This document shows, piece by piece, positions 4,720-24,896 of a DNA stretch of 64,000 nucleotides (the stretch's first letter is position 1; each line of letters opens with the position of its first letter). This stretch comes from Cytophagaceae bacterium (GTDB lineage: Bacteria > Bacteroidota > Bacteroidia > Cytophagales > UBA9547), in the NCBI GenBank assembly GCA_027488865.1, contig JAIYAU010000022.1, positions 67,969 through 131,968 of the forward strand, written 5' to 3'. The notes under the pieces were generated by a model. That model was not told the origin of the DNA. It did not search any database and worked only from the letters and a program-made list of their open reading frames with translations. Made by a program: the position numbers and the translations under genes.

Positions 4720-6726
4720 CTATTTTGATGAAGGCACCTCTACTTCCACCACTTCACTTTTCACCACATTGCCCAACTTGTCATAAATACGAAGTTGGTA
4801 TTGGTATTTGCCTGGTTTTTTGGCGGTTTTGTCAATCAACTCTGCTTCTGTAATTAATTTTTTACTGAATTGTTGCATGTCCTCGTTTTCGAGGGCACGA
4901 AATACCACTACACCATAAAAATTCTTATCAGTTTCCAATAACCAATTTAGTTTTAATTCTGTTGCTTTTTTGTCAAACTTGGCAGTAAATTTTTTCACTT
5001 TCAAAATTGTATTTGTGTTTACATTTTTAAAACTATAGGGCGTAGAAGCAATGGAAATGTTACTACTACTGTCTGAAGCATATAGAAAATACATGTAATT
5101 CTCATTCGTTTCAGCTGTTTTATCAACAAAAACAGTATCATTTATGGAAATATCTGATTTTAACACTGTTTTTATAGTGTCTTTGCCATATTTCATTCGA
5201 ATCAGAGCATAATTCTTTAAATCGTTGTCTACATTGGCCATCCATATAATTTCAGGAAAATCATTTTTTATTTGAATAGATTTAATAAATGGTTGCGCAG
5301 GTGCTTGCACGTCAGGCAATTGCAAGGCCACCTCAGGGCTAAATTTACTTCTATTAAAATTGCTATCTATGGCACAAACTTTATAGACAAACTTGGTTTT
5401 GGAGGCTTTTGAATATGCAATTTCAAAGCGATTTTCTTTAAAAGGTTTTCCATTCAAAATCACATAGTCTGTTGCACCAGCAGGTGCTTTGTACACAAAA
5501 TAACCCTTCAAATCTTTGTCGGGCGATGCTGTCCAAGTAAGTACAATTTTACCTTTGTCTAAGGTTGCTTTAAAATCCTTGGGTGTTTCTGGTGCTACCA
5601 CATCGCGCACATCGGCCATGATGGCTTGTGAAAAACCTTCATTTCCAGAAGAATCGACTGAGGTGACAACATAATAATATTCATCCACTTTGGGCACTAC
5701 ATCAATGTAATTGGTAGTTTTCTTAGAAATGGGTTTACTGGTTACTTTTTCAAAACCTTTATCGTATTTCAAACTTCTGTACACATAGTATCCACTCAAA
5801 TCAGGCGAGTTTGGGGCTTTCCATTTGAGTTTGATGCGTAAGGTATCTACATCAAGCAACACACTATCAGGAGGAAACGGAGGTTCGAAATCTTTTTTGC
5901 CAACCGTGAGTTCTGGGCTAAAAAGTGAAGCTTGACCAAAATAATCTACTGCCGCAAATTTGTATTGATAAAGAGTGTCGTTTGATGCAGACACATCGGT
6001 ATAATAGTACTTTGGATATTTACCATTTTCGCCCATTTGTGGGTAAATAGCTACATCGTTTAGTTTTTTGAAATCTTTACCATTGGCAGCCTTACGAAAA
6101 ACATCAACCCCAAGGAAAGTTTGAGGCAAATGAAGCCAGCTAAATTTCACGCCTTCTTTTTTTCTTTCAAATTTGATTTCTTGTGGTTCGGAAATAGGTT
6201 TCCAATCTTCTACTTTAATAGAAATTGATGTTGCCATCAAAATATCTGTGCCCGTACTTATTCTCCTCAATATATACTGATAACTTTCACCTTTTACAGC
6301 GCTGCTATCAATAAAACCATTGCCAATGGCATACGCAAAATCAAAATTTTGGACAGCACGTAGCTTTACCATGGCTTTTCCCAAACCCTGTTTATTGATC
6401 GTTTCAGAAGAAAATTTGGACAGATTGGCATAAAATTCGGCATACTCGCCTTCCAATTTCAGAGATGATGGCAAGGATTTCAAAAACGCAATGGGCTGTT
6501 TATTGATCTTTACCAAATTGGTGGTGCCTTCTTTTTTTCTATAAATATTGTATCCCTGTTCGTATTTGAGTTGGTCTGAAAAAAACTTTAGCAATACTTT
6601 ACCAGAACCAATTTGGCGATAATCGTTGGAAACGAATATATAGTTTTTGTTCTTTTTTGGTTTTTGTGCTAGTGTTGCAAAAGCAACAAGTAGCATTAAA
6701 AACACTGATAATTTTATTTTCTGCAT
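4720..6726 (-). CDS. Secreted fibronectin type III repeat protein, last gene of the surface operon
   Basis: 668 aa with an N-terminal Sec signal peptide (MQKIKLSVFLMLLVAFATLA, cut before QKPKK). The body has several FN3-like domains of about 95 residues with the pattern PPxPxxxxL, KLKWKAPxxPDLxGYYVYR and YYVVTSVDSSGNEG; the clearest are at residues ~280-375, 375-470 and 470-565. No T9SS sorting domain, membrane anchor or lipobox Cys is visible, and the C-terminus ends in an FN3-type strand, so it may stay in the periplasm or bind another envelope protein. The ATG is only three bases after the stop of the 2922-aa gene, which implies translational coupling and a shared role. The exact function is not recognised. 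Confidence 0.8.
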   Translation of the reverse strand: MQKIKLSVFLMLLVAFATLAQKPKKNKNYIFVSNDYRQIGSGKVLLKFFSDQLKYEQGYNIYRKKEGTTNLVKINKQPIAFLKSLPSSLKLEGEYAEFYANLSKFSSETINKQGLGKAMVKLRAVQNFDFAYAIGNGFIDSSAVKGESYQYILRRISTGTDILMATSISIKVEDWKPISEPQEIKFERKKEGVKFSWLHLPQTFLGVDVFRKAANGKDFKKLNDVAIYPQMGENGKYPKYYYTDVSASNDTLYQYKFAAVDYFGQASLFSPELTVGKKDFEPPFPPDSVLLDVDTLRIKLKWKAPNSPDLSGYYVYRSLKYDKGFEKVTSKPISKKTTNYIDVVPKVDEYYYVVTSVDSSGNEGFSQAIMADVRDVVAPETPKDFKATLDKGKIVLTWTASPDKDLKGYFVYKAPAGATDYVILNGKPFKENRFEIAYSKASKTKFVYKVCAIDSNFNRSKFSPEVALQLPDVQAPAQPFIKSIQIKNDFPEIIWMANVDNDLKNYALIRMKYGKDTIKTVLKSDISINDTVFVDKTAETNENYMYFLYASDSSSNISIASTPYSFKNVNTNTILKVKKFTAKFDKKATELKLNWLLETDKNFYGVVVFRALENEDMQQFSKKLITEAELIDKTAKKPGKYQYQLRIYDKLGNVVKSEVVEVEVPSSK

Positions 6727-6729
6727 TTT

Positions 6730-9700
6730 CTATATTTCCAATTTAGCCTCAAAATCAATATCAAAATCTTCGCCTAAGAATTCAAAACCAGCATACATTT
6801 TTCCTTCGAATGATTTTTCATTTCTGGTAAGGATCAGTATCAATTCGCCACCCATGTAGACACCCATGCTCACTTTGCCACCAACACCAAATACCTTGCC
6901 CGATATATACGCACTTGCATCGCCTTCTACCTTTATTCGCAGTTTTTCCAATTCTACAAAATTTTCTTCACCACTTTTGGTAATAACCAAAATACCCTCA
7001 CCCTCAATAAGATAACCAAATTTAACTCCAGCACTAATAGATATAACTGTAACGCCTAAAGCCTCTTCAGAAAAACCACCTTCAAGCGCAAAACGATAAC
7101 TCTTGGAAATACCAGCCGCATACCTACGTGGACTTACATGAAAATACCCTTTGGTATCAAGTGACATACACAAAGGACGAAGCGAAGCCATTTTATCGGG
7201 TTCGGCTACCTTGATGTAAAAATCATCCTTGGAAAATTTGCAACTAAACGTGCCATTGTCAATACACATGAGTGGCTTGGTAGCCGTCACTTGTCCGTTG
7301 ATATACAATTCACCCGTCTTGGTGCTAAATGATGCGTAAGCAATGGCCTGCAAAATACTGGTGCTGTTGGTGGTGATCTTTCCAATTTTGCTAGGGCCAG
7401 ACATTTTTATGTTTTGCGTGGCTTGCGGGCCTTTATCGGCCGATTCATTGCCTAAAGCTAAGCCCCACGTATATTTATTTTTGTACAAAGTGCCATATTT
7501 GGTGCTTCCATTGCTCAATGTTGCCGACATCGTGCCTTCGCCTTCGCTTGCAATGGCAATGGTAGCCATTTTTTGTTTGGTTTCTATCAGCACGTTGTTG
7601 TCATCGGTGGCTTTTACATCAAAATCCATTCCTGCCACATTGAATTTAAATCCATCGCTCCCGCTGCCGTCTTTCATTTCCATGCCGTTGGCATCTTTGA
7701 ATTTGATAGGTTGATCGCCACCTGCCACTATTTCTTGCGTTCCATTTTTCAAGGTGATAATGCCATCTTCATCGATGGTAACGCCTTTGTCGCCATCTAT
7801 CATTTTGAGTGAACGGTCTTTCATGAAGGAAACTTCACTCTTTTTATAAAGCACTCCAAAATATTTATCGCCTCCATAGGTAATGCCATAGTCGGTTTTA
7901 AATGCACGAAGTGAGCTCAAGCCGCATTCGATATTTAGATCGTCCCAACCGATGCCGAAATACATTTTGCCTCCAATGCTAAACCACTTATTAGGCATGG
8001 TAAATTTGATTCCTGTAGGACCTGAATAAGACAAATTGTAGTCTTTGATTTTGAAATAAAAGCTTTTGGTAGGCAGTTTGAGGCCTTTTATTCCCAATTC
8101 TAAATCGGCCAATCCTGTTTTAATCAATAAATCGGTGTTGAATTCGAAGCGAGAGAATTTGTCGAAATATATGAGTCCATCAATTTTACCTAAAGACAAA
8201 TTAAAATCATCGTAAGTAAAATTCAATTTGTCTGTCCAGCCGCCTACATTCAGTTTGTATTTGGGCACATTGAATTGAATATTGGGTGATTTGAAGTTGT
8301 ACGACATGGCATAGCCATCTATGTCAAGCGAAAGCACATCTTTGAACTTGAAATTGTATTTGCCATCCATGTACCAAAGTCCATCGAGTTTGCCAAATCC
8401 CAAATCGTATTTGTCCATTTTCAAGCTGATTTTATCCATAGAAATAGAAAACAAATCGAGCTTGTATTTGAGTGAAAGGTCTTTATCAAAATTGTAGTTC
8501 AGATCAAGATCCACATCTTTGAGATTGAGCCCAACATCGCCAATGCTAAACGAACGAATGCCATCGGTAAGGCTGAAATTGCCCACTTTTGGGAAACTCA
8601 TGCCATATTTTCCCCATTTGCCATCAAAAGCCAAAGGCGATACTTGGAAAAATTTATCGATAGAATAATTGAATTTGAGATTTTTGTTGATGTCGAAAGA
8701 AAGCATTTTTCCATTCAAATCTACAGCAAACATTTTAGGGTCGATATTCAACTTGATGGGCAAATAGGCAAAACGAAGCGAATCCATGCTCAAGCCCAAA
8801 TCCAATTTATCCCACTTGGTAGAAATATTGATTGGGGTGATATTGAAATATTTATCTACATCAAAATTGAAACGCAAGTATTTATCCAACTCAAAAGCCA
8901 AAGCCATTTTATTGAATTTGAATTCAATTCCAGTATCGAATAATTTGAATATTTTGGTGTCGTAGGCAAACTGAATGAGTTTGTAAGGCTCAAAATCAAA
9001 TTTGAAAGCGTCAAAACTCATTTTGAACATCTCGGTATTCAAATTATAAGACGCCCAACGAGGAGCTTCGGGCATTTGAAATTTGATATTGAATAATTTG
9101 TCGATGCCGAAAGTATATTTGTTAAATCGCCATTTGAGTTCGTCAAGTGCAAAATCGAAAGCAAAGATGTCGTTAAAGGCCAATGAGAAATCGAATTTGC
9201 CTCGAAAATTGGTTTTGAAATCGCCAAAATTCAAATCAATATCGTAGCCAGAGAATTTGAGATCTAAGCCGCTTGGCATTTTAAAACTCAGGCCATCAAG
9301 TGTAGGAAATTCTAATTTGAAGCCACCCAAATTGAAATCAAAGCCAAAATCTACACCTTTAAACGACAAATCGTATGTAGGGAATTTGACACTCAAATAA
9401 GGAAATTTGCCCAATGAAAAACCGGCATTGAAATCGGGTAAGTTTGGAAATTTGATTTTAAGAAAAGATAAATCTCCATCAATATTATAAGAAAAACTAA
9501 AACCTTTGAATTCGTACAGTTTGCCAATTTCCAAAGTCACTTCTTTGCCATCGATAAATAGTCGTGGTTTTGGTTTGTCGTTTTTCAAAATCACTTCATG
9601 TTCACCATCATTTACCAGCAATGTTTCTTTATCCACACGAACTCGTTTTTGTCCGTTTACAAAATCGACAAACTGTTCAGTAGCATTGCGAGAGGCTTTG

Positions 9701-12700
9701 AAATCTTTGTCACCATCTTTCACCCTAACAAAAACATCGTTATTAGCCAATTTAGAAGCTTCGATGAATACATTGTCAATATAATATTTCACCAATTTGC
9801 TTTTGTCAGCACCCAAGGCAGCCGAAAGACTATCACCTTTGTATTCGTATCGAACCAGTTTTTTGCCATCAGCAAATGTTTGTCCGTACAAATTGACAGC
9901 CTTTATAGATGATTCAAAATAAAGCGTTTTGTCTTTAAATTGGCTGATGAACAACTTGTTATCCGCATCTTTGTATGCAAATACTTTGTCGCCTGTTTTG
10001 TTGATATTGAAATTTGTACTTATCTGACCTGCCTTTACCAAACCCACAAAACGTGTTTTTTCGATAACTTGCATACGCACACTGTCTGCACTTAATTTTA
10101 ATCCCAAGTCGATATTACCTTTGTTTTTATCGGCTAGAATCGAAAAACTATTGGCATTATCAACATAAGTGGCAAAACCGTTGCCTGTTTTATCGCCTTT
10201 CACCACCATTTTCCTTTCTTTTTCTTGGTAATATATATCGCCTTTGCCATCCTTGTTTTCTACATTGGCACCCAAAGAAAAATCAGCATAAGATGCCTTG
10301 AACTGAGCTATGCCTTTGTTTTTATCTAGCTTGGCGCTTATGCTGTCATTGTCCAATTTAAAATATAAAGTACCTTTGGCATCGGATTTAATTCCTGCCA
10401 TATCCACTTTCAAATTGGGTTGTGTGAAATTGAGGCTGCTATTGCCTTTGGAGTCCAAATTGGCATCAAGGCTTCGTTCACCCGTTTTTAGTGAGATGTT
10501 TGCTTTGCCCGCTTTGTCGAAAGCACCAGAAATGCTATTGCCATCTACAGCAGAATTGATGGAACCATTGCCTTCGTTCAAATCAAATTTGCCCGAAACA
10601 CTGTCGCTTGCCAACACAAAACTGGCTATCCCAATTTTGGTTTTTTTATCGCCTTGGATATTCAACATCACATTTTCTTTGGGAATATTGAGGAATATTT
10701 TTCCAAAACCTTTGCTATCGCCAGCCAAAGCCAGAGCAAATTCGGGCATCGACAAGCTAATGCTTCCTCGTCCAGATCGGTCGATGCTTCCGCCCACGAA
10801 GCGATTTCCATACAACCCAGCAAAGCGACCCTTTCCTTCTTTATCGTTCAAATACAAATTGAGTGAATCGTTGTTGGGCAAAGCCAAACTGAAACTGCCC
10901 ATCCCAATGGTTTTATCGCCTGCGGCTACAATTTTTAAATTATCATTTTGGAAAAACAAATTGCCTCTGCCCTCAGCATCTGCCCCTACTTTTACACCCA
11001 AATTGCCTGATTTGAATGAAAGCAGCCCTCTTTTTTCTTTGTATCCTGCCAATTTCAAATTCAAATCAGCATTGTTCATATTCACCACAGCACTATCAGG
11101 ATTTACGGCTAAAATATATTGGTCATTGTCTTTTTTAAAATCGAACAAACCAGATGCTTCATTCAAATTGGCTTTTGTATTGAGTTTGTAGCTGGCAGCA
11201 TCTAAAGTGAAAAATGCTGAACCCTCTTTTTTGTCTGCCCCCAGACTAAATTCTTTTCCGCTTGTGGCAATCAAAATTTTTCCCGATTGGTTTTTGGTAT
11301 CTAAATCGAAACTGTATTTGTCGTTTTCTTTTTGATAAGTCATCCAGCCTTTGCCGTTGTTGGTTTCTACACCAGCATCGAGCAATATTCCCGAAGTATT
11401 AAGTTTCATGCTTGATTTTTCGGTACTTCCTTCAATATCCACATCCACGCCATTGGTATTCACTTTTACTTTGCCTTGGCTATTTTCCTTGTCAAATTCA
11501 ACAGCAAGATTGTCGTCAATTTGCAATTTGCCATAGCCTGATTTTTTGCCTTCCAACCCAATCGAATGTCCATCGGCTTTGATTTTGATGGCTGCCGAAC
11601 CCAAAGATTTATCAATCGAAGTATACAAATTAAAATCGCTACTAGGCACAAAACTCAACGTGGCCGATTGTTTGATGAGGTCACTACTTACGAACATGCT
11701 TTTGCCATCGTAATTCATGCCAAAGCTGCCCCTCCGATTCTTTTCTAAATAGCTGCCTTTTAAGCCAAAACTAGTGCCAACATTAAAATTGAGACTTGCC
11801 GAATCGCCAGGGAAATAAGCCAAACCCATGCCATAGGTATTGCCCGATTTTTTTGCTATGTTGAAAGCCAAGGCTTTGGTAGAGCTACTTCCGGAAATAT
11901 CTAATTTCCAATCTTGGTCTTCAAAATTGAAATACCCAAATTTCTTTATCACATTAGCGCCAAAAGCAATGCTTGTGTTTCCATTTTTACCTTTCAGACC
12001 ACCTTCTGACAAATCGGGTTTGATGTTGGGGTTGAATGTCCAGTCGCCTACTTTTATCGATTGGTTATTAACTTGATTCACCACTTCACCTGCCGCCTTT
12101 TCTGCCAATGGTTGCAATGCGGCACTGGCAGCCTCACCAGGTACAACTGACCTTCCCGTTAAATTCACAAAAGTACCTTCGGCTTGCATCGCCAATTGGA
12201 AATCGCCTTCCAAATACTTCATTTCCAAGCCCACATCTGCTTTTACATTTACACCATTGGAAGAAGCATCTATCAATTGCATGTACAAAGCACCACCGAA
12301 ACGCACCTTTCTGTCTACTTTCATGGTGATAGCCTTGGTCTTTTTATCGACTTCAGACGACATATTGCCATAAATATTTCCTTCTATTCCCACAGCATTA
12401 ATTACCCCTGGCACAATGGGAAAACCGATGCCATCGTCTTTGGCAAATGCTTCGAAATACCAAAATTTAGTTCCTGAAGGATCTTTGCCCACAATCATGG
12501 TAGAACCTGCTTTGATTTTAGTAGGTGCATAAATAAACCCAGACAAAGTACCTGTAAATACATTTCCCCACTGCGGATCGTCCTTTTTGATTTCCAAAGT
12601 ACCTGACATAAATGCTACAGGTGTATTAAGCTCAACTTCTAATTTATCTACTGATTTTATACTCTCAGGCTTTGTATTTAACACTGCCGAAGAAATAGGC

Positions 12701-15498
12701 ACTTTAGGCTTGTTTTCATAATCGTTTGGAATATTGAGGCTGGTATTTAGTTCTATCGAGCCATAGAAATTGTTGGAAAGCGGTTCACCTCCAGGGCCAG
12801 AAAAGTCATCTGACAAATTCATCGCCCCTTTCATATAATACAAATATTTGCCATTCAAATATGCTGCTCCAATCCCAGCAATATTTACTTCAACTATGCC
12901 ATTGGCATAGCCCACCATTTCTTTCTCGAAAATACATTCGCCATTTGGCCTATCGAAACCAATTTGATGAGTGCCAAATATTTTGAAACCACTTTGGTTG
13001 TTTACCGCCATTTTCAATCCCTTCACTTCTACATCAACGGTTGCATCCAGACAGTTAGCTTCACTAAATTTGATGCGTTTTATGGTAAAATCTCCTCTCG
13101 ATTCTGGGGCTTTTTCACTGAAGGTTATTTTTTTGCCTTCGAGTTTTTCCTCCAATATGCCATCAATAAAACCATCATTGTTGATATTTGCCGACACCCT
13201 AAATTTTTTAGCTTCATCAATAATGGGTATATCGATAGATGCTTTGAAAATACCAGATTTGACAACTCCATTTTCAACCAGTACTTCAAACAAGCCAGGT
13301 TTTGCGGAAAATGCGTTGAATTTGATTTTGGTTGTTGGGTCAATTTCTTTGCTATAATTGAAAAATAAACCTGTGGCTTTGAAATAGTTTTTGATCGTTT
13401 TTGTTTTTGAAAGGTCGATAGCCTCCACTACTTCTTCATCGAAAGTAATGCGCTTCTTCTCGTCAAATTTTTGTTTGAATTGTAGATCGAATCGAGGGAT
13501 ATAAGCTCCTTTCCAATCGCTTGGAAAGTCAGCTGGTGATTTTTTGTCAGAAAAATCGATTACAAAATTCTTAGGTTGGACTAACAAATTTGCATTAGGA
13601 ATGGGGCGATATGGCGGTATGCGAATATCGTCTTTCTCGGCATCGAACTCAATATAGGTGAGGTCGCGCAAGTTTACAAATGGCAATGTAATGCGATTAC
13701 CTTCAGCACTTTGCGAACTTTCTGGCAACCCAATACTTCCGTAATACACCAGATCGTATCCATTTATTCCTATAAAAGCGGTGGTATTGGTATCGAGAAG
13801 GATTGTGAAATTCAGCGGCTCCATCAAATCGTATTTGCCAGAAATCTTTACCCCACCCGTAATTTTAAATTTATTGTAATCGACCCAAGTATTTTGTGAG
13901 GTAATTTTGGGCTGTTCACCATCGATTACAATATCCAAAGGCACTACCATTTTGCCTCGCAAGCGAAGTGCATTTTTATCTAATTTCACTGCGTTGGGCG
14001 TAAAAAATAGACTGGCTCTTTTGCCATCTTTTGATTTTATTTCTTCAGCTTCGCCATTGGTGATTTCTTTAAACAATTCGCCTTGTTCGAGAACATAAAC
14101 TTCATTGGCTATCTTTTTTATTTTAATGTCCTTGAAATCGACTTCGGCAAATTTTTTGCCTTCCCTGTCTAACTTCACTCTGCCTCTACCTGACAATTTG
14201 TTCAAATCATTGTTTTTGGTGCTCAAGACAGCCACTTCATGATCGCCAGCCAAAAATTTCTCTAATGTTGGTCGGCCCTTGAATTTGCTAATGACACTTT
14301 CCGCCACTTTTTGTTCGCCTGAATAGCCTTCTATTTTCCACAAAAACCAGACATCTCGTTCAAATTCTTCGTTAACAATTGTTTCCCAAGAAGTAGAACT
14401 GGTTGTAGGCCGGGTAGTTTCGTCATATACTGCTGGTTTATTTTTAAACGCATCTTCAATATTGTTTGTATCCGAGGCATCAATTTTCACAATTCTTAAT
14501 CTATAAGCAACGGGTTGAGATGGAGCCGCTTTATTGTCGGGCGAAAGCCATTTGAAAAGTTGCTGTTTACCAGGTTGGAACTGATGGTTTTTTATAGGAA
14601 ATTCTAATTCTATCTTACCCCCAGTAGGATAACCATACATAAACCAGTTTGGCTCGCTTAAACCATCGTTTCTAAATAGAGCTTGGTTATTTTTATCTGC
14701 TACTTTTACTTGATACACATATCGTTTGCCTATTTCCAATTGAGTGGCCGAAGCATCAAATACAAACTGCAAATTGTTGGTAAACTCACTTTCATATATT
14801 TTCAAAGCATTGTCACTTTTAATAGCTACTGCAGGATCCACACCTTCGGTAGTGATTTCGAACACACGCAACTGATACTCAGTATTGGCTGGATTGAGCG
14901 GCGGAGCCGTCATAATCCATTGGAAAATAATATTTTGTGGATTTGAAGGAAGAACATAATTAGTTCTAGGAGAAATGACCTGAGGAATACCGCCCAATTG
15001 AAAAAAGCCAGAAGCGCACCCTGAATTGGATAATAATTTGCCCGATCTAAAATCTAGAGCTTCAATACAAATGGTATAAAACCCTTCTGGAAGAACCCCT
15101 TTCTCTGTTAAAATTTTAGGATCTGTACCAGAAATCGCCACATTTTCAAAAGCCAAATACGGCACCCAATCATCTCCAGCAATTGATAACGGTACCCCTG
15201 GATAAATGGTAATGGGCGAGTAACCTGCTGAAGGACTAGATTCAATGGTAACGCCGTTGCTCGATGATATTTTAACTTTCAAGCGAATTTCCCATGAAGG
15301 CTCGGAGAAATCTTTGAAAAGCAAAGTAGCCATTAAGGCTTTACTATTCACTTTATAAAAATCAGAATAAAAAGGAGAATAGGGAGGATTGAGCAAGGTA
15401 TTAATTTGCACGGGTGTTTGTACTTGGCCTATGGTCGAAAAGCAACTGAGTAGGCCCAATAAAAATATCCCAATTCTTATTAATTTGTTCATTTTCAT
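6730..15498 (-). CDS. Giant (2922 aa) envelope protein with N-terminal TANFOR-like region and long amphipathic beta-repeat zones
   Basis: Begins with a Sec signal peptide (MKMNKLIRIGIFLLGLLSC, then FSTIGQVQ). Residues ~25-180 (NPPYSPFYSDFY, then LPEGFYTICIEA) resemble the TANFOR domain named from Tannerella forsythia; I recall this rather than searched it. Residues ~180-400 have two Ig/FN3-like units (FQWIMTAPP, FKWLSPDN). Residues ~400-1200 are mixed beta-rich sequence. Residues ~1200-1800 are a repeat zone of ~20-22 residue beta units marked by GxGxxxF and DKxxG turns. Residues ~2010-2515 are a Phe/Leu/Asp-rich zone of alternating hydrophobic and polar residues. The C-terminal ~400 residues are glycine-rich beta sequence ending FEAKLEI. 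No T9SS CTD, catalytic motif or membrane helix is visible. It sits directly upstream of the FN3 gene and downstream of the barrel gene. Function unknown; a structural or groove-forming envelope protein is my inference. Confidence 0.85.
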   Translation of the reverse strand: MKMNKLIRIGIFLLGLLSCFSTIGQVQTPVQINTLLNPPYSPFYSDFYKVNSKALMATLLFKDFSEPSWEIRLKVKISSSNGVTIESSPSAGYSPITIYPGVPLSIAGDDWVPYLAFENVAISGTDPKILTEKGVLPEGFYTICIEALDFRSGKLLSNSGCASGFFQLGGIPQVISPRTNYVLPSNPQNIIFQWIMTAPPLNPANTEYQLRVFEITTEGVDPAVAIKSDNALKIYESEFTNNLQFVFDASATQLEIGKRYVYQVKVADKNNQALFRNDGLSEPNWFMYGYPTGGKIELEFPIKNHQFQPGKQQLFKWLSPDNKAAPSQPVAYRLRIVKIDASDTNNIEDAFKNKPAVYDETTRPTTSSTSWETIVNEEFERDVWFLWKIEGYSGEQKVAESVISKFKGRPTLEKFLAGDHEVAVLSTKNNDLNKLSGRGRVKLDREGKKFAEVDFKDIKIKKIANEVYVLEQGELFKEITNGEAEEIKSKDGKRASLFFTPNAVKLDKNALRLRGKMVVPLDIVIDGEQPKITSQNTWVDYNKFKITGGVKISGKYDLMEPLNFTILLDTNTTAFIGINGYDLVYYGSIGLPESSQSAEGNRITLPFVNLRDLTYIEFDAEKDDIRIPPYRPIPNANLLVQPKNFVIDFSDKKSPADFPSDWKGAYIPRFDLQFKQKFDEKKRITFDEEVVEAIDLSKTKTIKNYFKATGLFFNYSKEIDPTTKIKFNAFSAKPGLFEVLVENGVVKSGIFKASIDIPIIDEAKKFRVSANINNDGFIDGILEEKLEGKKITFSEKAPESRGDFTIKRIKFSEANCLDATVDVEVKGLKMAVNNQSGFKIFGTHQIGFDRPNGECIFEKEMVGYANGIVEVNIAGIGAAYLNGKYLYYMKGAMNLSDDFSGPGGEPLSNNFYGSIELNTSLNIPNDYENKPKVPISSAVLNTKPESIKSVDKLEVELNTPVAFMSGTLEIKKDDPQWGNVFTGTLSGFIYAPTKIKAGSTMIVGKDPSGTKFWYFEAFAKDDGIGFPIVPGVINAVGIEGNIYGNMSSEVDKKTKAITMKVDRKVRFGGALYMQLIDASSNGVNVKADVGLEMKYLEGDFQLAMQAEGTFVNLTGRSVVPGEAASAALQPLAEKAAGEVVNQVNNQSIKVGDWTFNPNIKPDLSEGGLKGKNGNTSIAFGANVIKKFGYFNFEDQDWKLDISGSSSTKALAFNIAKKSGNTYGMGLAYFPGDSASLNFNVGTSFGLKGSYLEKNRRGSFGMNYDGKSMFVSSDLIKQSATLSFVPSSDFNLYTSIDKSLGSAAIKIKADGHSIGLEGKKSGYGKLQIDDNLAVEFDKENSQGKVKVNTNGVDVDIEGSTEKSSMKLNTSGILLDAGVETNNGKGWMTYQKENDKYSFDLDTKNQSGKILIATSGKEFSLGADKKEGSAFFTLDAASYKLNTKANLNEASGLFDFKKDNDQYILAVNPDSAVVNMNNADLNLKLAGYKEKRGLLSFKSGNLGVKVGADAEGRGNLFFQNDNLKIVAAGDKTIGMGSFSLALPNNDSLNLYLNDKEGKGRFAGLYGNRFVGGSIDRSGRGSISLSMPEFALALAGDSKGFGKIFLNIPKENVMLNIQGDKKTKIGIASFVLASDSVSGKFDLNEGNGSINSAVDGNSISGAFDKAGKANISLKTGERSLDANLDSKGNSSLNFTQPNLKVDMAGIKSDAKGTLYFKLDNDSISAKLDKNKGIAQFKASYADFSLGANVENKDGKGDIYYQEKERKMVVKGDKTGNGFATYVDNANSFSILADKNKGNIDLGLKLSADSVRMQVIEKTRFVGLVKAGQISTNFNINKTGDKVFAYKDADNKLFISQFKDKTLYFESSIKAVNLYGQTFADGKKLVRYEYKGDSLSAALGADKSKLVKYYIDNVFIEASKLANNDVFVRVKDGDKDFKASRNATEQFVDFVNGQKRVRVDKETLLVNDGEHEVILKNDKPKPRLFIDGKEVTLEIGKLYEFKGFSFSYNIDGDLSFLKIKFPNLPDFNAGFSLGKFPYLSVKFPTYDLSFKGVDFGFDFNLGGFKLEFPTLDGLSFKMPSGLDLKFSGYDIDLNFGDFKTNFRGKFDFSLAFNDIFAFDFALDELKWRFNKYTFGIDKLFNIKFQMPEAPRWASYNLNTEMFKMSFDAFKFDFEPYKLIQFAYDTKIFKLFDTGIEFKFNKMALAFELDKYLRFNFDVDKYFNITPINISTKWDKLDLGLSMDSLRFAYLPIKLNIDPKMFAVDLNGKMLSFDINKNLKFNYSIDKFFQVSPLAFDGKWGKYGMSFPKVGNFSLTDGIRSFSIGDVGLNLKDVDLDLNYNFDKDLSLKYKLDLFSISMDKISLKMDKYDLGFGKLDGLWYMDGKYNFKFKDVLSLDIDGYAMSYNFKSPNIQFNVPKYKLNVGGWTDKLNFTYDDFNLSLGKIDGLIYFDKFSRFEFNTDLLIKTGLADLELGIKGLKLPTKSFYFKIKDYNLSYSGPTGIKFTMPNKWFSIGGKMYFGIGWDDLNIECGLSSLRAFKTDYGITYGGDKYFGVLYKKSEVSFMKDRSLKMIDGDKGVTIDEDGIITLKNGTQEIVAGGDQPIKFKDANGMEMKDGSGSDGFKFNVAGMDFDVKATDDNNVLIETKQKMATIAIASEGEGTMSATLSNGSTKYGTLYKNKYTWGLALGNESADKGPQATQNIKMSGPSKIGKITTNSTSILQAIAYASFSTKTGELYINGQVTATKPLMCIDNGTFSCKFSKDDFYIKVAEPDKMASLRPLCMSLDTKGYFHVSPRRYAAGISKSYRFALEGGFSEEALGVTVISISAGVKFGYLIEGEGILVITKSGEENFVELEKLRIKVEGDASAYISGKVFGVGGKVSMGVYMGGELILILTRNEKSFEGKMYAGFEFLGEDFDIDFEAKLEI
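7900..9470 (-). repeat. Phe/Leu/Asp-rich alternating beta zone of the 2922-aa protein
   Basis: About 500 residues in which short strands of the form LxFxFxL alternate with DK, GK or DG turns (for example LSFKMPSGLDLKFSGYDIDL). A looser 50-60 residue period is visible through recurring DKYFNI, DKFFQVSP and DKYDLGFGKLDG segments. Strong alternation of hydrophobic and polar residues over the whole zone points to amphipathic strands. Confidence 0.7.
10100..11870 (-). repeat. GxG-turn beta-repeat zone of the 2922-aa protein
   Basis: About 590 residues built of roughly 20-22 residue units, often in pairs of about 40. Units carry a turn like NKGKGxIxF or KTGxGxxxF followed by a strand ending SLxxDK (for example DKEGKGRFAGLYGNRFVGGS and DRSGRGSISL). 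Weakly MORN-like in spacing, but without the MORN consensus (YxGxxxxGxxxGxG). Confidence 0.65.
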
Positions 15499-15567: not shown

Positions 15568-17310
15568 TTAAAAAACAAAATCATATCCAATTTTGCCTTG
15601 GTATTCGCTAAACGTTTGTCCTTGACCTTCTATGGTGTTTTTTTTGATCAATGACGTTTCCAATTTAATAGCATGGTGCTTGTTTACTTTGTAGGTGGCA
15701 GATATTTTATTGGTTAATGTGGTAGATTTAGCAGCAATGTCTGTGTTGTTTAAGTAAGCTGTGGTGTACACCAAATTCAACTTCTTTTCCAGCATTTTTT
15801 TATTTAAACTTATAGAAGGACCGATGGAAATTGTTTTAACATTAGGGGCTTCAATTTGATTGTATAGTATAGCGGCCGTGCCACTTGCTTGCCAAGGCTG
15901 ATTATTAACTGTATAGCTTCCACTTATATTAGAAACCTTATTGGTTTGTAAAACTTGATAATTGATGAATTCTTTGATATCGTTTGATTCTTGAAATGTG
16001 ACTGCCATCATGGCCGAATGCTTAAATTCTGATTTGCCCCAAGAATAATTTAATGTCCCTCCACGGCTTTGGTTAATCTGAACTAATTTTACCGAATCTT
16101 TCTTAGTGATTACAGAAGGCGAGGTTGAGTGATTAAAATTAGTATAATTTAAGTTCAACACTAAGTTATTTATAATAGTGTATGTTACGTTAAACGAGCC
16201 AATGTACCTTCTCATGGTCTGAGCGAGATTATTCTGAAGGTTATTTTTTTCTGTACCTACGTTGGCCGCTAATAAAACCTTATTTTGAAACAAACTGGTG
16301 TTCGTATTTAAAGTATATGCTTGTATATCGTTTTTGGCAGTAAGTACGCCCAACGAGGCATAAGTCGGATCTACACGTAAATAATTGATGCCTACAGTCC
16401 AATATTTTTCTTTGTAATTAGCTATCACATTATAAGCGTTGTTAAAAGTGGTTGAATTTAACGGAGTGAAAAAACCTTTCAAATTGTTAAAATAATTATA
16501 TCCTCCTGTTTGCTCAAAATTTAAATTTCTTTTATCCAATGTAAGTGCACTAGCCGTATATTCTACCATCAAATCTAATTTCTTAGTAATTTGGTTTTTG
16601 GTTTTTAAGCCCAATACCAAATTTTCTTTTGGGCTAATTCCAAATTTTGTATTTATTATATCCCCTGGATAATAATCATCCTCAGCATGAAAAAGGATTA
16701 AAGAAACATTGTGCTTCGATTTGCCCAATTCTACTTTAGTACCAAAACCCTTTCGTAAATATGCGGGGGCTATTGGCGTACCATTAATGGTATCCCCTAT
16801 TGTTCTCCTATTTAATCGACCATAAAACATAGCAAGTTTAACTAATCCATTGGTAGGTGCTAATTCTACTCCCCCACCAAACCAACGAACGCCAGAATAT
16901 GAATATTTAGAAAAATCTAGAGCTCGATCTCCCACATGTATGGTCACCCATTTGTATTTGGGACTAGCACCAGTTTTATTTAATATTGAATAAAGTACAG
17001 CTAACGGGTCACCAGATTTAGTAATACCACTATTAGTATAATTTATAGCAAATGGAACTGAAACCTTGCCAAACAAAGTAACTGTGGCATTTGCATTAAG
17101 CGCATAGGCAAATGGTGCTCTTCTTGACGCTATTCCATTTACCCCATAGCCAACCGCAGAAGCATTGAAGCCACCTGTTACCTTTATAGGTTTTACCTTT
17201 TTCAAATTCTTGATGTCTTCCAATGCTTTTTCAGCGTCTTGAGCAAAAAGAAATGCGGGGCACCAAAAAATAAACAAGAAAAGTATTTTACTGTTAAGCT
17301 TTGAATTCAC
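15568..17310 (-). CDS. Outer-membrane beta-barrel protein (putative), T9SS operon
   Basis: 580 aa, GTG start at 17310; a stop codon directly precedes it in frame and no ATG lies near, so the GTG is the likely start. Signal peptide MNSKLNSKILFLFIFWCPAF, cut near FAQ. After a short Lys-rich stretch (EDIKNLKKVKPIKV) the rest alternates hydrophobic and polar residues in ~10-residue strands with many aromatic residues, and the chain ends GKIGYDFVF: a C-terminal Phe is typical of BAM-inserted barrels. Position between porP/sprF and the 2922-aa gene suggests an outer-membrane partner of the adhesin system. No family recognised with certainty; a pore, receptor or assembly factor are all possible. Confidence 0.75.
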   Translation of the reverse strand: MNSKLNSKILFLFIFWCPAFLFAQDAEKALEDIKNLKKVKPIKVTGGFNASAVGYGVNGIASRRAPFAYALNANATVTLFGKVSVPFAINYTNSGITKSGDPLAVLYSILNKTGASPKYKWVTIHVGDRALDFSKYSYSGVRWFGGGVELAPTNGLVKLAMFYGRLNRRTIGDTINGTPIAPAYLRKGFGTKVELGKSKHNVSLILFHAEDDYYPGDIINTKFGISPKENLVLGLKTKNQITKKLDLMVEYTASALTLDKRNLNFEQTGGYNYFNNLKGFFTPLNSTTFNNAYNVIANYKEKYWTVGINYLRVDPTYASLGVLTAKNDIQAYTLNTNTSLFQNKVLLAANVGTEKNNLQNNLAQTMRRYIGSFNVTYTIINNLVLNLNYTNFNHSTSPSVITKKDSVKLVQINQSRGGTLNYSWGKSEFKHSAMMAVTFQESNDIKEFINYQVLQTNKVSNISGSYTVNNQPWQASGTAAILYNQIEAPNVKTISIGPSISLNKKMLEKKLNLVYTTAYLNNTDIAAKSTTLTNKISATYKVNKHHAIKLETSLIKKNTIEGQGQTFSEYQGKIGYDFVF

Positions 17311-17401: not shown

Positions 17402-18823
17402 TTAGTACAGCCAAATGTTACCAAAAATCAAATCGTCTATTTTCTGCTTTTTAATCCTGTTAATTTCTGTTAACGCGTCCCTGTAATTTGTAACCTCTTT
17501 TGTAGATACCAAATAATAAGTTTCGTTTCTACTTCTTATAACTGATGTGGTAAGATTAGCTCTTTTTAACAGAATCTTTTGGTACTTTTTAACATCTTCA
17601 AATTTGTAGTAGGCCGCAATTATTACGCTAGCTTTACCTTTAGGAAAATCCTTAATAAATCTTTCATCCCCTGCTTTGTTATCAAGACTTGACAAATTTT
17701 CAACTGCTACCTCATCCACCATGCCTTGTGACTCTTCCGCATAAATATTTTGGATATCAGCATTGAATGCACTTTTCAGAAAATCTGGGTCTATTCCATC
17801 TTTCATGATAAATACATGGTACAAAGTATCTGATCTGCGGTTATTTACAGATTTAATATCTGATTTTGGCACTTCTCGAGTTTCTGATAAGGTGTAGCTA
17901 TCGGAGGAAACACTTTCATCAGTTATTGGTTTGGATTTAGATTTTGACCCCAAATTATATCCAATACATAATTCATGAATTCCTGACGAAACAGTAGCTA
18001 AAGCACTAGTTGGATAGCCATAATTATACCCAACAGTTAAGTTGTCATATATTAAACCCAATGTAGCACCCACAGCAGAGCGAGAATCATAGGTTAACCC
18101 ACCCCAAAACATTTTTTTGAAATTGAAAATTGCATTTGCCGATACCATGGTTTCAGTACCTTGTGAACTTCTTCCTATTAACAAAGGATTGAAAGTTATA
18201 TCATTAACAATTGGTAAATCATATTTTACAAACAATTGATAAACTGGATTTTGCAAGTAAGATAAACTACCTGTCTCGATTTTAGATTTGGCGAAATTTA
18301 TGTTGGTAATTGAAATACCAGTTTGTAATTGTTTTCGAGTATAAGTAAACCCAAAATCTGATGTAAATTTAGCACTAGGGCGTAATCTTGTGAAACTTTG
18401 AATCTCATCGGCGCTGGAAGCCACAACGCTGTTAAGGTCAACTCCTGTATTAACATAACCAGCTGACAACCCTAACCTAACGTTTTGGAGAGCACTAATA
18501 GGTACTAGATAGCTGTAGCTCAAATTAGCTCCAAAGCGTTTAATAATATTCATTTTATCATTATAAAGCTGAAGCCCCAAACCCATTCTCTCGTGAGGCA
18601 GACCTTTGTCCATAGAAATAAGCATACTTTCAGGTGCGCCTTTAAAGCCTACCAATTGATTGCGATAATGAGCGAAAGCCTTCAGATCTGCAGTATTTCC
18701 TGCATAAGCTGGACTTAGCAAATATGGATTAACAAAAGTTTGGGTGAAATTGCTAGTTTGTTGCGCCTGAAGCGATAAAACCATATTGACCCCTAAAACG
18801 ATAAGTAAAATACTTTTTTTCAT
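17402..18823 (-). CDS. PorP/SprF family T9SS outer-membrane protein with C-terminal SPOR-like extension
   Basis: PorP/SprF proteins are outer-membrane barrels needed for export or surface attachment of type-B CTD adhesins such as SprB. Family signs: the mature start QQTSNFTQTFVNPYLLSPAY, then AGNTADLKAFAHYRNQLVGF and ISMDKGLPHERMGLGLQLYN, followed by barrel strands to about residue 295. The family usually ends there (~300-330 aa). This one is ~473 aa and adds a Ser/Lys-rich linker and a final ~75 residues resembling a SPOR domain (a strand, helix, then YYLVSTKEVTNYRDALTEIN). I place the start at the ATG at 18823, which begins a signal peptide (MKKSILLIVLGVN); an upstream in-frame ATG at 18862 overlaps the previous stop by 4 nt. 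It directly follows a type-B adhesin, as sprF follows sprB. Confidence 0.9.
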   Translation of the reverse strand: MKKSILLIVLGVNMVLSLQAQQTSNFTQTFVNPYLLSPAYAGNTADLKAFAHYRNQLVGFKGAPESMLISMDKGLPHERMGLGLQLYNDKMNIIKRFGANLSYSYLVPISALQNVRLGLSAGYVNTGVDLNSVVASSADEIQSFTRLRPSAKFTSDFGFTYTRKQLQTGISITNINFAKSKIETGSLSYLQNPVYQLFVKYDLPIVNDITFNPLLIGRSSQGTETMVSANAIFNFKKMFWGGLTYDSRSAVGATLGLIYDNLTVGYNYGYPTSALATVSSGIHELCIGYNLGSKSKSKPITDESVSSDSYTLSETREVPKSDIKSVNNRRSDTLYHVFIMKDGIDPDFLKSAFNADIQNIYAEESQGMVDEVAVENLSSLDNKAGDERFIKDFPKGKASVIIAAYYKFEDVKKYQKILLKRANLTTSVIRSRNETYYLVSTKEVTNYRDALTEINRIKKQKIDDLIFGNIWLY

Positions 18824-18858
18824 TTTTGTAAATTGTATAGTGTTTTTGAATAGGATTA

Positions 18859-21800
18859 TCATTTCGTAAGACCAGATTTATCTGCATTTACCAAAATCGT
18901 GAGTGTGCCTTTATGCACCACACTTGAATTTTCAAAAGTAACAACAAAATAATAAGTACCATCGGGTAATTGATCACCAGCTTTACTTGTGCCTCCCCAA
19001 TTGTTTTGGTAATTGCGAGCCTTAAAAACTTCCTGTCCCCATCTATTAAAAATCATTACTGTATTGTCTGGGTAGGAGGTGATATTATCGATTACCCATG
19101 TATCATTTTTCCCATTACCATCTGGAGTAATAATATTTGAAAGAGTATTATCTATTCCTACTAAATTAAAATCATCATTTACAGTTACTTTAATGGTGTC
19201 AGAAGCCACGCAACCTCTTTTGTCGGTTACTGAAAAAACATAATCCTCCGATTTTTCAGGTTTGATAATCACTGAAGAGGATAATGGATTATTTATCCCA
19301 TCTAGAGGACTCCAAGTGTAGTTTCCTTCTGAAGCCGAGACATTTAAATAAATAGAAACGCCCTTAGAAACAGTGGTATCACCGATTAAGGATACCTTTG
19401 GCAAATCGTAAATGGTAATGGCTTTGGTAGTACTATCGCTACATTGACCACCACTTATCGTTGCCTTTAGAGTGACATAATAAGTACCTGATGACAAATA
19501 GACATAGGTTGGATCTTTAATATTATTCTTGTTGCCATCATCAAAGTTCCAGCTATAAGTCAGTACTCCTGCTGTACCCGATGAAATGGTGGTGCGGTTT
19601 ACAAATGCCGCAGGCGTACCAAGACAGGCATTATCAACTGTAAAATTAGCCACAGGCACATTATTAACTGCTACTGCCTTGGTTAAGCTTTGTTTGCAAC
19701 CTTTATCTGATTCAGCCAATAATGATACATTGTAATTGCCACCATTTAAGAACTGATGGATAGGATTTTCTTGTAATGAATTGGTAAGATCTCCAAAATC
19801 CCATTGATAATATACCAAACTACCTGTTGGAATAGTTGAAGTGTTTTTAAATGTGGTTGGGAATCCATCACAAACAGTGTCATTTGCAAAACCTACAACA
19901 GGCAAAGGATACACAGTAATTTGCTTTTCGGTAGTGTCTAAACAATTTCTATTTGATACCGTCAATAACCTCACGTTGTAAGTAGTAGGGTTGGTGTATG
20001 TAGTGGTTGGATTTACCAGATTGGAGATTTGGTTATTTCCCAATGTCCAAGTATAGGACATAGTACCTGATTCTATAGAAGAAATATTGCTGAAATTAAC
20101 CGACTGACCAGCGCACAATTCATTAAATGTAAAATCAGCATTTGGTTTTGGATATACCTCAATGTATTTACTAGTGGCACCTTTGCATCCCTTATCAGAG
20201 GTAGCAATTAATTGTACAAAATAAGTTCCAGGACCATTATATGTTTTTAATGGATTGGTACTTGCAGAAGAAGATTGATCACCAAAATTCCAATTGTAGG
20301 TAATAGCACCACTATTTATTTGAGAATTGTTAATAAAACTGGTTTGCAAACCATAACATACATCTTGTGCATTGAAAAGTACAATAGGATTAGGATATAC
20401 ATTCAAAGGAATGTTCTTGTTGCTTTGGCAACCTTTATCTGTAGTCACCGTCAATTGTACATTGTAAGTCCCATTGCTACTATATATTACAGCTGGTTCG
20501 GTATTACTTGAAACAGTACCATTCCCAAAATTCCACAAATAACTCATCGTACCCGCATTTAGCGTACTTAAGTTGGTAAAAGAAAACACATTGCCTTCAC
20601 AAGTGTCTTTCTTAGAAAAATTAGCAACTGCAGCATCAAACACGTTAACCAATTTGGAAGTTGAATCTGTACAACCGTTTAAATTTGAAACGGTTAGCAC
20701 AACTTTATAAGCTCCAGGATTGATATAAGTGTAATTAGGACTTTGGGCTGAAGATGTACCTATAAAATCACCAAAATTCCAAGTAAAGCTCGAATTGCCT
20801 GATATTCCTGAACTTTGGTTGGTAAATGACATTTGTGATCCTTTACAAATGTCGTTTTGGATAAAACGAGCTGTTGGCTTTTGGCTTACAGTGATCAATT
20901 TAGATGTAGTATCTGTGCATCCTCTATTTGAAGTGACAGTTAAAAACACCCTGTAAGTACCATCTTGGGTAAATGCCCTACTTGGATTCAAAAGATTTGA
21001 AGTAGTACCATCACCAAAATCCCAGATCCTACTAGCAATTGTGCCTGTACTTATCGATGAATTGTTAGTAAATGTGGTAGATTGGCCAAAACAAGTGGAA
21101 GCGCTATTGGTGAATGAAGCAACTGGATTTGCATAAACTGAAACTGTTTGCACCTTACTATCCGTACAGCCACTATTAGATACACCCACCAAACTTACCG
21201 CATAATTGCCAGCAGAAGTATAGGGTTTTAATGGAGATACTAATGATGATGTCGGAGAGCCATCGCCGAAGGTCCAAGTGTAATTGACGGTACCTCCAAA
21301 AAATGCAGAAGTATTGTTAAAATTGACTGTATCGTTGGTACAACTATTATTATAAGTAAAATTTACCGTCGGTTTTTGGTAAATAATAACTTCTTTCTCA
21401 ATGCTTTGTATACAATTACGATCGGAGGTGACAGTTAATTTAGCATAATAACTTCCTGAGGCAGCATAAGTTTTGGTTGGGCTAAGCGCATTTGAATTTG
21501 TACCATCTTTATAATCCCAGTTATAGAACATTGTTCCTGAGCTAATTGTGGAAGTATTATTGAAGGTAGTTGATTGCCCTATACAAACATTTGCTACATT
21601 GAAATTTGGCAGTGGATTAGGAAACACCTGCACTGACTTGCTTATTGCATTATTACAACCAAATGGTGAAGTTGCAGTAAGGGTAACATTAAATATGGCA
21701 GGAGCAGAAAATGTATATTCAGGATTTGTAAGTGTAGAAGTGTTGCTTCCGTCGCTAAAGTTCCAAAGGTAGGTAAGATTGCCAGTGGAAATGTTGGTTG

Positions 21801-24800: not shown

Positions 24801-24840
24801 GAAAAAATCCTGCTGCTATCAAAAACCATAAACGTTTCAT
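18859..24840 (-). CDS. SprB-like giant adhesin: 9 Ig-like repeats, 12 PKD domains, T9SS type-B sorting domain
   Basis: 1993 aa from the ATG at 24840 (signal peptide MKRLWFLIAAGFFQAVHVFG); an earlier in-frame ATG at 24885 would add 15 unlikely residues. The N-terminal ~830 residues hold nine Ig-like units of about 85-95 residues (WESS, then TTYYRAVVKNGAC). Next come 12 PKD domains of about 82 residues (WNFGDG, YxxxGxYxVxLTVTS). Every PKD has one Cys near its start and one near its end. An Ig-like unit and the type-B gliding-motility CTD follow (IITPDGNGKNDTW, MIFNRWGQEVF, LPDGTYYFVV). The gene is followed at once by porP/sprF. By analogy with SprB this should be a long surface filament exported by T9SS and used for adhesion or gliding. 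Confidence 0.92.
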   Translation of the reverse strand: MKRLWFLIAAGFFQAVHVFGQGGIYPVSNEFCFNSSTSVRLTWAGEASYAVDRWEYSTNDGASWNNVTSNLTYFDETTNFTGTRRYRARINVGGGIYQYSNESRVTVFAASSQGSATFTSTAAQLCSGDNAGTIFLNSGFVGSVIGWASSNNNAAPWTDISNATNSLAYANVATPTYYKAIIKNGVCPQTLTTDAVFLDIAPVPNGGAVTISASSICFGTSANLTSSNTSGTLLTWQQSTGGSYTDISTGASYSTPTNLAANNYIYRLKATQTCRDATNATVSKLAYSEELNLTVATPTGITNPSGNNTVTNADPTVRSITAAPVNGNILRWELSADNSQWTPLSANGTTYNFNNLTQSTYYRVVTKNGACNEIASTVPVKITVAKGGTISASATDFCSPSTSGSMDVAGIESTSFLWESSVSPYTTWTPVGGSANFNTISFNALTQNTKYRVNVNSGLAFSNELLINVSSATVQGTLSTANSTVCPNDITSRTINLTGHTGGIVRWESSTTNGEPWIAIANITSSLSFNNLGESTYYRAVVKNGACTQISTAALQIVVAQGGTVSGSRSVCAFDGTSRSVTLTNHIGTVNNWEQSVYNTLTSTWGAFTNVGNAGATFFTYSNLTSSTRYRAVINSACASPVYSTVAEILVNDQTVGGTLSGAKTVRPNANTGSINLVGNNGAVVRWESSITNTAPWQTINITTSPLNYTNLAATTYFRAIVKNGECSETTSSNTILISVANGGSITGVAEVCSGDATTRTLSLFNQTGTISRWQSSTNSGVSWNDIAASSGATSLAINSLTQTTKFRAVITEDGGDIYSAEQQVNVNPLPVPDFSASTACLNAATTLTNTSSIIEGSILSNVWNFGDNTGSSITAPSHIYSSAGSYNIKLILTSAKLCKDSITKAVVVRPLPDVNFDFINVCDQNPVAFTNLSSLPGYTLTYAWGFGDSFTANTSDPTHTYASKGNYNVSLTVFANGTCAKSLTKTVTIFEKPQANFSFTNVCDGNAMKFVNTTNISTGNLTYLWNFSDGSNTSTLTNPEYTFSAPAIFNVTLTATSPFGCNNAISKSVQVFPNPLPNFNVANVCIGQSTTFNNTSTISSGTMFYNWDYKDGTNSNALSPTKTYAASGSYYAKLTVTSDRNCIQSIEKEVIIYQKPTVNFTYNNSCTNDTVNFNNTSAFFGGTVNYTWTFGDGSPTSSLVSPLKPYTSAGNYAVSLVGVSNSGCTDSKVQTVSVYANPVASFTNSASTCFGQSTTFTNNSSISTGTIASRIWDFGDGTTSNLLNPSRAFTQDGTYRVFLTVTSNRGCTDTTSKLITVSQKPTARFIQNDICKGSQMSFTNQSSGISGNSSFTWNFGDFIGTSSAQSPNYTYINPGAYKVVLTVSNLNGCTDSTSKLVNVFDAAVANFSKKDTCEGNVFSFTNLSTLNAGTMSYLWNFGNGTVSSNTEPAVIYSSNGTYNVQLTVTTDKGCQSNKNIPLNVYPNPIVLFNAQDVCYGLQTSFINNSQINSGAITYNWNFGDQSSSASTNPLKTYNGPGTYFVQLIATSDKGCKGATSKYIEVYPKPNADFTFNELCAGQSVNFSNISSIESGTMSYTWTLGNNQISNLVNPTTTYTNPTTYNVRLLTVSNRNCLDTTEKQITVYPLPVVGFANDTVCDGFPTTFKNTSTIPTGSLVYYQWDFGDLTNSLQENPIHQFLNGGNYNVSLLAESDKGCKQSLTKAVAVNNVPVANFTVDNACLGTPAAFVNRTTISSGTAGVLTYSWNFDDGNKNNIKDPTYVYLSSGTYYVTLKATISGGQCSDSTTKAITIYDLPKVSLIGDTTVSKGVSIYLNVSASEGNYTWSPLDGINNPLSSSVIIKPEKSEDYVFSVTDKRGCVASDTIKVTVNDDFNLVGIDNTLSNIITPDGNGKNDTWVIDNITSYPDNTVMIFNRWGQEVFKARNYQNNWGGTSKAGDQLPDGTYYFVVTFENSSVVHKGTLTILVNADKSGLTK
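19380..22350 (-). repeat. Array of 12 PKD domains
   Basis: Twelve tandem units of ~82 codons, each with FxNTS, WxFGDG and GxYxVxL blocks and a conserved pair of cysteines. Linkers are usually PxP (VYPNP, IYQKP). Confidence 0.85.
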
Positions 24841-24896
24841 CTTAAGTTTATTTTTAGGGATAATACTAATGCAATTAAAAATCATGAACTAAGTAC

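What the first reader, a model, noticed from the sequence alone, without database searches (positions are those of the whole stretch)
6730..15498. A 2922-aa protein of unknown fold with two kinds of long amphipathic beta repeats
It has a signal peptide but no T9SS CTD, no helix and no catalytic motif. About 1100 residues are two distinct beta-repeat zones. The N-terminus recalls the TANFOR region known from Tannerella. The rest does not match a family I can name. Its size and location behind the PorP/SprF and barrel genes suggest a scaffold or envelope-spanning component.
Basis: partly seen in the sequence, partly recalled or inferred. Interest (0 to 1): 0.85.

Follow-up and report, generated by a model that had tools for sequence, protein, structure and literature searches.

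The report
Giant beta-ribbon protein with barrel partner
A 2,922-residue exported bacterial protein is the variable member of an undescribed three-gene set (outer-membrane barrel, giant beta protein, Fn3 protein) found across the Bacteroidota, and its two repeat zones look like long, one-sided-greasy beta ribbons spliced into a conserved core; what the set does is still unknown.

Summary
The ORF is real (15498..6730, minus strand, 2922 aa, signal peptide, no T9SS CTD) and so are both repeat zones. Zone 1 (about 1180-1890) repeats every 22 residues. Zone 2 (about 1990-2540) is aromatic-rich, with a unit near 17. Hydrophobic residues alternate in the strands, and adjacent strands share one hydrophobic face. 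The zones recur, in the same order, in homologues from other Bacteroidota, but a 60%-identical sister protein of 1371 aa lacks both. They are therefore an optional insert in a conserved all-beta core. That core is the second gene of a cassette: outer-membrane barrel, giant, Fn3 protein. A giant-type gene adjoined the barrel gene in 18 of 20 loci sampled across the phylum, and the barrel was found only in genomes with T9SS SprA. The N-terminus is a divergent relative of TANFOR, but TIGR02542 does not match, no toxin or immunity gene is present, and the C-terminus is conserved, so it is not a TANFOR toxin. AlphaFold models the core confidently (Fn3 pair, then long beta sheets) and zone 1 weakly as a single-layer sheet resembling OspA, MORN1, CPAP and apoB. 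Most likely role (inferred): a very long envelope or surface scaffold/adhesin held or exported by its partner barrel.

The parts
6730..15498 (-). GIANT: the 2922-aa protein (P0001)
   Evidence: single copy in its genome
15424..15498 (-). signal peptide, residues 1-25
   Evidence: highest hydrophobic window of the protein; homologues start at the same place
14269..15420 (-). TANFOR-like region and Fn3/Ig-like domains, residues 27-410
   Evidence: homologues hit TIGR02542 weakly; the homologous model matches Fn3 tandem pairs, Z 8.5-9.6
12151..14271 (-). conserved all-beta core, residues 410-1116
   Evidence: 60% identical in L053, about 28-30% in other orders; model pLDDT 78.6, nearly all strands
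12049..12150 (-). junction linker, probably helical, residues 1117-1150, just before the insert
   Evidence: equivalent segment in L054, L055, L058, L062
9829..11961 (-). Zone 1: 22-residue beta-hairpin repeats, about residues 1180-1890
9532..9828 (-). spacer between zones, residues 1891-1989
   Evidence: 41% identical to G003
7879..9531 (-). Zone 2: aromatic-rich short-strand hairpin repeats, unit about 17, residues 1990-2540
7429..7878 (-). post-repeat region, residues 2541-2690, conserved only with the zones
   Evidence: 60% identical to G003; absent from L053
6733..7428 (-). conserved C-terminal beta module, residues 2691-2922
   Evidence: 68% identical in G004/L053, where it follows the core directly; long strands in the model
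15568..17310 (-). BARREL: 580-aa outer-membrane barrel partner
   Evidence: 20-member alignment, invariant C-terminal Phe; no consistent Pfam match and no PDB match; next to GIANT across the phylum
4720..6726 (-). FN3: Fn3-repeat protein, third gene of the cassette, 3 bp downstream
   Evidence: profile matches Fn3 structures; gene order
17402..18862 (-). PorP/SprF-like shuttle with a C-terminal extension
   Evidence: (E 5e-53)
18859..24885 (-). PKD-repeat T9SS type B substrate, 2008 aa
24897..32771 (-). PKD-repeat T9SS type A substrate, 2624 aa
32781..33896 (-). tail-collar-domain protein, first gene of the putative operon
   Evidence: below cut-off; homologues near other cassettes

Best explanation
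P0001 is the giant, length-variable subunit of a conserved Bacteroidota cell-envelope cassette, BARREL - GIANT - FN3. Shown: signal peptide; conserved core with Fn3-like domains and long beta sheets; a lineage-specific insert of two hairpin-repeat zones; a gene for a barrel-like outer-membrane protein beside it across the phylum; an Fn3 gene after it; neighbouring T9SS substrates and a PorP shuttle. Inferred: Sec exports GIANT to the periplasm. BARREL then holds it at, or passes it through, the outer membrane, as PorP/SprF barrels do for type B adhesins but without a CTD. The repeat zones act as a long, amphipathic, mostly single-layer beta ribbon that lengthens the protein into a stalk, fibre or scaffold; its hydrophobic face packs on itself, on a partner or on lipid. 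FN3 and the PKD, collar and type B proteins would be the outer, adhesive parts of the same surface assembly.
For: BARREL directly upstream of GIANT in 15 of the loci fetched by core homology, some with overlapping frames. Across the phylum, a GIANT-type gene next to BARREL in 18 of 20 loci, usually with FN3 after it (with for L133). BARREL in 142/395 genomes, all among the 303 with SprA. Core model: Fn3 pair plus nearly all-strand remainder, pLDDT 78.6. Repeat zones amphipathic with a consistent face and shared by five lineages, yet absent from the 60%-identical sister. In L058 zone 1 is built of 194-residue and zone 2 of 153-residue duplicated blocks, as expected of a length-tuned spacer. Type B substrates and their PorP/SprF shuttles form linked pairs (PMC12618676; PMC9143113).
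Against: No experiment shows where any of the three proteins sits. GIANT has no CTD. The repeat-zone model is poor overall (pLDDT 47, pTM 0.26). BARREL's barrel nature rests on sequence features only (strand-rich, C-terminal Phe, no Pfam or PDB match). SprA is in 165 of 171 sampled genera, so the co-occurrence has little power after kinship. Most cassettes lack the repeat zones, so these cannot be essential to the system.
Confidence: 0.5

Rival explanations
1. P0001 is a TANFOR-class polymorphic toxin (Jana et al. 2020): the N-terminus is the delivery domain, the repeat zones are the stick, and a toxic tip lies at the C-terminus.
For: Divergent TANFOR-like N-terminus; signal peptide; Fn3, PKD and T9SS-CTD neighbours as reported for TANFOR genes; variable inserts.
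Against: No TIGR02542 hit for P0001; no toxin domain; the C-terminus is conserved (68% in G004, 41% in G003) instead of variable; the next gene is FN3, not an immunity gene; the last 650 residues of ten other GIANTs across the phylum hold no toxin domain.
Confidence: 0.1
2. The zones and the core sheets form a lipid- or hydrophobic-cargo-binding belt or groove (apoB/MTP- or TamB-like), so the cassette moves or stores lipids at the outer membrane.
For: apoB100 is among the best structural matches of both models (Z 12.0 core, 12.7 zone 1); strongly one-sided amphipathic strands, zone 2 rich in Phe/Tyr.
Against: Other, non-lipid sheets match as well (OspA, CPAP, MORN1, MOMP); rmsd 6-13 A; TamB/AsmA and other lipid-transfer families gave no Pfam match; MORN1 did not bind membranes or lipid vesicles despite amphipathic hairpins (PMC7725318).
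Confidence: 0.15
3. The C-terminal module of GIANT (about 940-1116 plus 2691-2922) is itself a membrane beta barrel and the repeat zones are one enormous surface loop, with BARREL an assembly partner.
For: About 24 consecutive strands, several 14-24 residues long; porin MOMP Z 12.0 and usher PapC Z 11.0; the insert sits in a low-confidence loop of this sheet.
Against: No conserved aromatic C-terminal residue as in BARREL; rmsd 10-13 A; pTM 0.44; the same region also matches apoB.
Confidence: 0.15

Closest known systems
TANFOR-domain proteins (TIGR02542), a class of Bacteroidetes polymorphic toxins (PMC7073777)
   Same: Homologous N-terminal region by way of intermediates; signal peptide; large size; neighbours with Fn3, PKD and T9SS CTDs.
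   Different: P0001 gives no TIGR02542 match; it has no toxin tip, no immunity gene and a conserved C-terminus; the barrel partner was not reported there (sections read: main results and neighbourhoods).
Type B CTD adhesin / PorP-SprF shuttle pairs, such as SprB-SprF (PMC9143113, PMC12618676)
   Same: Giant exported beta protein encoded next to an outer-membrane barrel in a T9SS-positive genome; the same operon also holds a real type B/PorP pair.
   Different: GIANT has no CTD; BARREL is unrelated to the window's PorP by profile comparison (probability 1%).
Free-standing single-layer beta sheets: Borrelia OspA, MORN1, CPAP/SAS-4 TCP10 domain
   Same: Regular antiparallel hairpin meander with about 20-23 residues per hairpin; best structural matches of zone 1 (Z 10-12).
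   Different: No sequence kinship; zone 1 has about 32 hairpin units and a clearly one-sided hydrophobic face; the model is weak.
Apolipoprotein B100 amphipathic beta belt
   Same: Long amphipathic antiparallel sheet; top structural match of core and zone 1.
   Different: No sequence match; no evidence of lipid binding.

Membership tests
TANFOR polymorphic toxin | N-terminal TANFOR domain (TIGR02542 above cut-off) | tested here: not met
   No hit at E<=10; homologues L035, L037, L040, L046 hit at E 1e-6 to 6e-8 but under the 67-bit cut-off
TANFOR polymorphic toxin | C-terminal toxin domain, variable between relatives | tested here: not met
   No Pfam or NCBIfam toxin; C-terminus conserved
TANFOR polymorphic toxin | downstream immunity gene | tested here: not met
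   The downstream gene is the conserved FN3 protein
TANFOR polymorphic toxin | signal peptide and T9SS-substrate neighbourhood | tested here: met
T9SS substrate | type A or type B C-terminal sorting domain | tested here: not met
   No TIGR04183, TIGR04131, Por_Secre_tail or CHU_C match in P0001, while P0003, P0004 and P0008 do match
T9SS substrate | secretion abolished in a T9SS mutant | not testable with these tools
   needs an experiment
MORN repeat proteins | MORN sequence signature | tested here: not met
   No Pfam MORN match at E<=1; fold resemblance only
OspA-type single-layer sheet (fold, not family) | free-standing antiparallel sheet fold | tested here: inconclusive
   OspA entries at Z 10-12 to zone 1, rmsd 6-12 A, on a model with pLDDT mostly 50-78 there
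TamB/AsmA-type bridge-like lipid transfer proteins | Pfam TamB/AsmA domain | tested here: not met
TamB/AsmA-type bridge-like lipid transfer proteins | groove (beta-taco) fold | tested here: inconclusive
   not among the rows listed; model weak
PorP/SprF family (for the BARREL gene) | PF11751 / TIGR03519 profile | tested here: not met
   No hit; profile comparison with P0006 gives 1%
Two-partner secretion TpsB (for the BARREL gene) | POTRA domains before the barrel | tested here: not met
   No POTRA match in Pfam; strands begin directly after the signal peptide (read by eye)

The most novel reading that the evidence does not exclude
BARREL - GIANT - FN3 is an undescribed, CTD-independent export or anchoring system of the Bacteroidota, with BARREL as dedicated outer-membrane partner of a giant beta protein. 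In this lineage the system builds a very long (tens of nanometres) amphipathic single-sheet beta ribbon that acts as a structural rail or hydrophobic conduit.
Probability: 0.2. Interest if true: 0.85.

Novelty: new variant of a known kind. Interest (0 to 1): 0.6.

Why it matters
The three-gene cassette is widespread (BARREL profile hits in about a third of 395 sampled Bacteroidota genomes) and has no named barrel family, no solved structure and no known function. It gives the large group of TANFOR-related proteins without toxins a concrete partner to test. The optional insert is a natural experiment: sister proteins with and without 1,570 residues of beta ribbon at one site of a conserved core.

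Tried and rejected
Pfam, NCBIfam and PDB sequence searches with P0001 found nothing usable; the core profile against PDB sequences found nothing significant. Phage records hold no relative. A nine-member alignment was too divergent for the contig scan; a five-member core alignment worked. DNA tandem-repeat search shows no repeat array in the zones, so the repeats are old or diverged, unlike L058, which has recent duplications. BARREL as a PorP homologue: rejected. Toxin tips in ten other GIANTs: none. A tree of 17 cores did not resolve whether the zones arose once. Bacteroidetes-type promoter pattern: one match about 100 bp before the first gene of the putative operon (33998-34028, minus), but matches in the window are no more than chance. 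TamB/AsmA-like proteins did not appear in the structural lists, which does not exclude them.

Full report
Observation. The ORF is at the stated coordinates, on the minus strand, 2922 aa, one copy in its genome. It starts with a signal peptide. P0001 has no Pfam family above cut-off, no NCBIfam match (so no T9SS sorting domain) and no PDB match. The two repeat zones are real. Zone 1 autocorrelates at 22, 44 and 66 residues, zone 2 at 7, 34 and 66. Alternation of hydrophobic residues within strands is 5.4 and 6.0 standard deviations above shuffles. Neighbouring strands put their hydrophobic residues on one face in 22/28 and 19/28 cases against 14 expected. Strand limits came from a weak model, so the face test is supportive rather than independent.

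Core and insert. The decisive comparison is G004/L053 (Cytophagales MAG). Its 1371-aa homologue is 60-61% identical over residues 1-1116 and continues directly into residues 2691-2922 (68%), with nothing in place of the 1,570 residues between. P0001 and L053 are sisters with full support. Comparable zones, in the same order and with the same periods, occur in G003 (same family; its contig starts inside zone 1), L055/G041 (another family of the order) and the Flavobacteriales L058 (3225 aa) and L062 (2453 aa); L054 keeps zone 1 only before its reading frame ends. In a survey with the zone alignment, 3 of 390 genomes of the order had them, so they are rare. The segment leading into zone 1 is similar in all, which suggests common origin at one site, but the tree does not settle it. 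In L058 zone 1 grew by 194-residue and zone 2 by 153-residue duplicated blocks. Other relatives have helical inserts at a different place, about residue 930 (L056, L060), or between strands of the C-terminal module (L057, L059). Against G003 zone 1 is 37% identical, zone 2 49%, the post-repeat stretch 60% and the C-terminal module 41%, so the zones are under constraint.

Cassette. In loci fetched by core homology, a 550-650-aa barrel-like gene directly precedes GIANT in 15 loci, sometimes overlapping it, and an Fn3 gene usually follows, often with tail-collar and PKD genes. A profile of 20 barrels (A6; invariant C-terminal Phe) hits 142 of 395 genomes of the phylum. In 20 loci taken across those families, 18 have a GIANT-type gene next to BARREL: usually downstream, upstream in two; in L122 and L126 the neighbour matches only the core profile and the TANFOR-like N-terminal protein comes after FN3; L133's barrel was hidden by a longer ORF and is placed. 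L123 and L131 have none. The own genome has a second cassette at G000:C40 (L117). All 142 barrel-positive genomes are among the 303 SprA-positive ones (hypergeometric P about 1e-21). Negatives are concentrated in a few families and SprA is in 165 of 171 genera, so this is consistent with, not proof of, a T9SS link. Weak barrel hits of 800-950 aa may be other barrels. In the window the genes run, all on the minus strand and closely spaced: collar, PKD type A, PKD type B, PorP/SprF, BARREL, GIANT, FN3 (33896 to 4720), so one operon is likely (inference).

Structure. The L053 core (residues 172-1371, 20-row alignment) gave mean pLDDT 78.6, pTM 0.44. Its first 235 residues match tandem Fn3 domains (Z 8.5-9.6). 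The C-terminal 430 residues are about 24 strands, with best matches apoB100, porin MOMP and usher PapC (Z 11-12, rmsd 10-13 A). P0001 1400-2599 gave pLDDT 47, pTM 0.26. Only zone 1 parts (about 1410-1540 and 1620-1780) reach 60-78, as a regular meander of 7-8-residue strands. Their best matches are apoB100, CPAP/SAS-4 TCP10, OspA and MORN1 (Z 10-12.7, rmsd 6-12 A): sheets that stand free or nearly so. Zone 2 has no usable model.

Interpretation. The TANFOR paper (PMC7073777) reported toxins, Fn3, PKD and T9SS-CTD neighbours; the sections I read do not mention a barrel. P0001 fails the toxin criteria (conserved C-terminus, no immunity gene), and ten other GIANT C-termini lack known toxin domains. 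The closest working analogy is the type B adhesin with its PorP/SprF barrel (PMC9143113, PMC12618676): linked genes, giant beta protein, dedicated barrel. GIANT has no CTD and BARREL is not PorP, so this is an analogy, not membership. I rate a barrel-partnered surface or envelope scaffold most likely (0.5), with lipid-binding belt, self-inserting barrel and toxin as rivals.

Limits. SprC and SprD of the F. johnsoniae sprCDBF operon could not be compared because no sequence was at hand.

Noticed in passing
window 17402-18862 (-): The PorP/SprF-like protein is long (486 aa): its PorP domain ends near residue 302 and the C-terminal extension looks like a SPOR domain (E 0.13), which could bind peptidoglycan and replace a separate PorE-like anchor; the G004 orthologue has a similar length.
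   Followed up: partly
G000:C40:1575-8791 (L117): A second BARREL-GIANT cassette (569-aa barrel, 1815-aa giant) in the same genome.
   Followed up: partly
window 57043-63981 (-): Another giant ORF (2312 aa, TTG start near the window edge) of repeated Ig-like units whose C-terminal end resembles the gliding-motility/type B sorting domain by eye.
   Followed up: no
window 50-4636 (+): 1528-aa protein with 14 bacterial Ig (Big_7) repeats and a type A T9SS sorting domain, convergent with the cassette.
   Followed up: partly
L063:3088-8226 and L064:2132-7252: In these giants the core segment around residues 453-684 occurs twice, an internal duplication, and the beta-repeat insert is absent.
   Followed up: no
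L137, L138: Weak BARREL-profile hits in proteins of about 918 aa encoded next to genes that look like CHASE2-domain proteins by eye; perhaps a wider barrel superfamily.
   Followed up: partly
L071:9911-15536: In this Chitinophagaceae locus the giant appears split into two genes: a 478-aa TANFOR-like protein followed by a 1385-aa ORF without a match at the threshold used.
   Followed up: no
several phylum loci, e.g. G402, G423, G516: GIANT-type N-termini in reading frames of up to about 6,400 residues.
   Followed up: no
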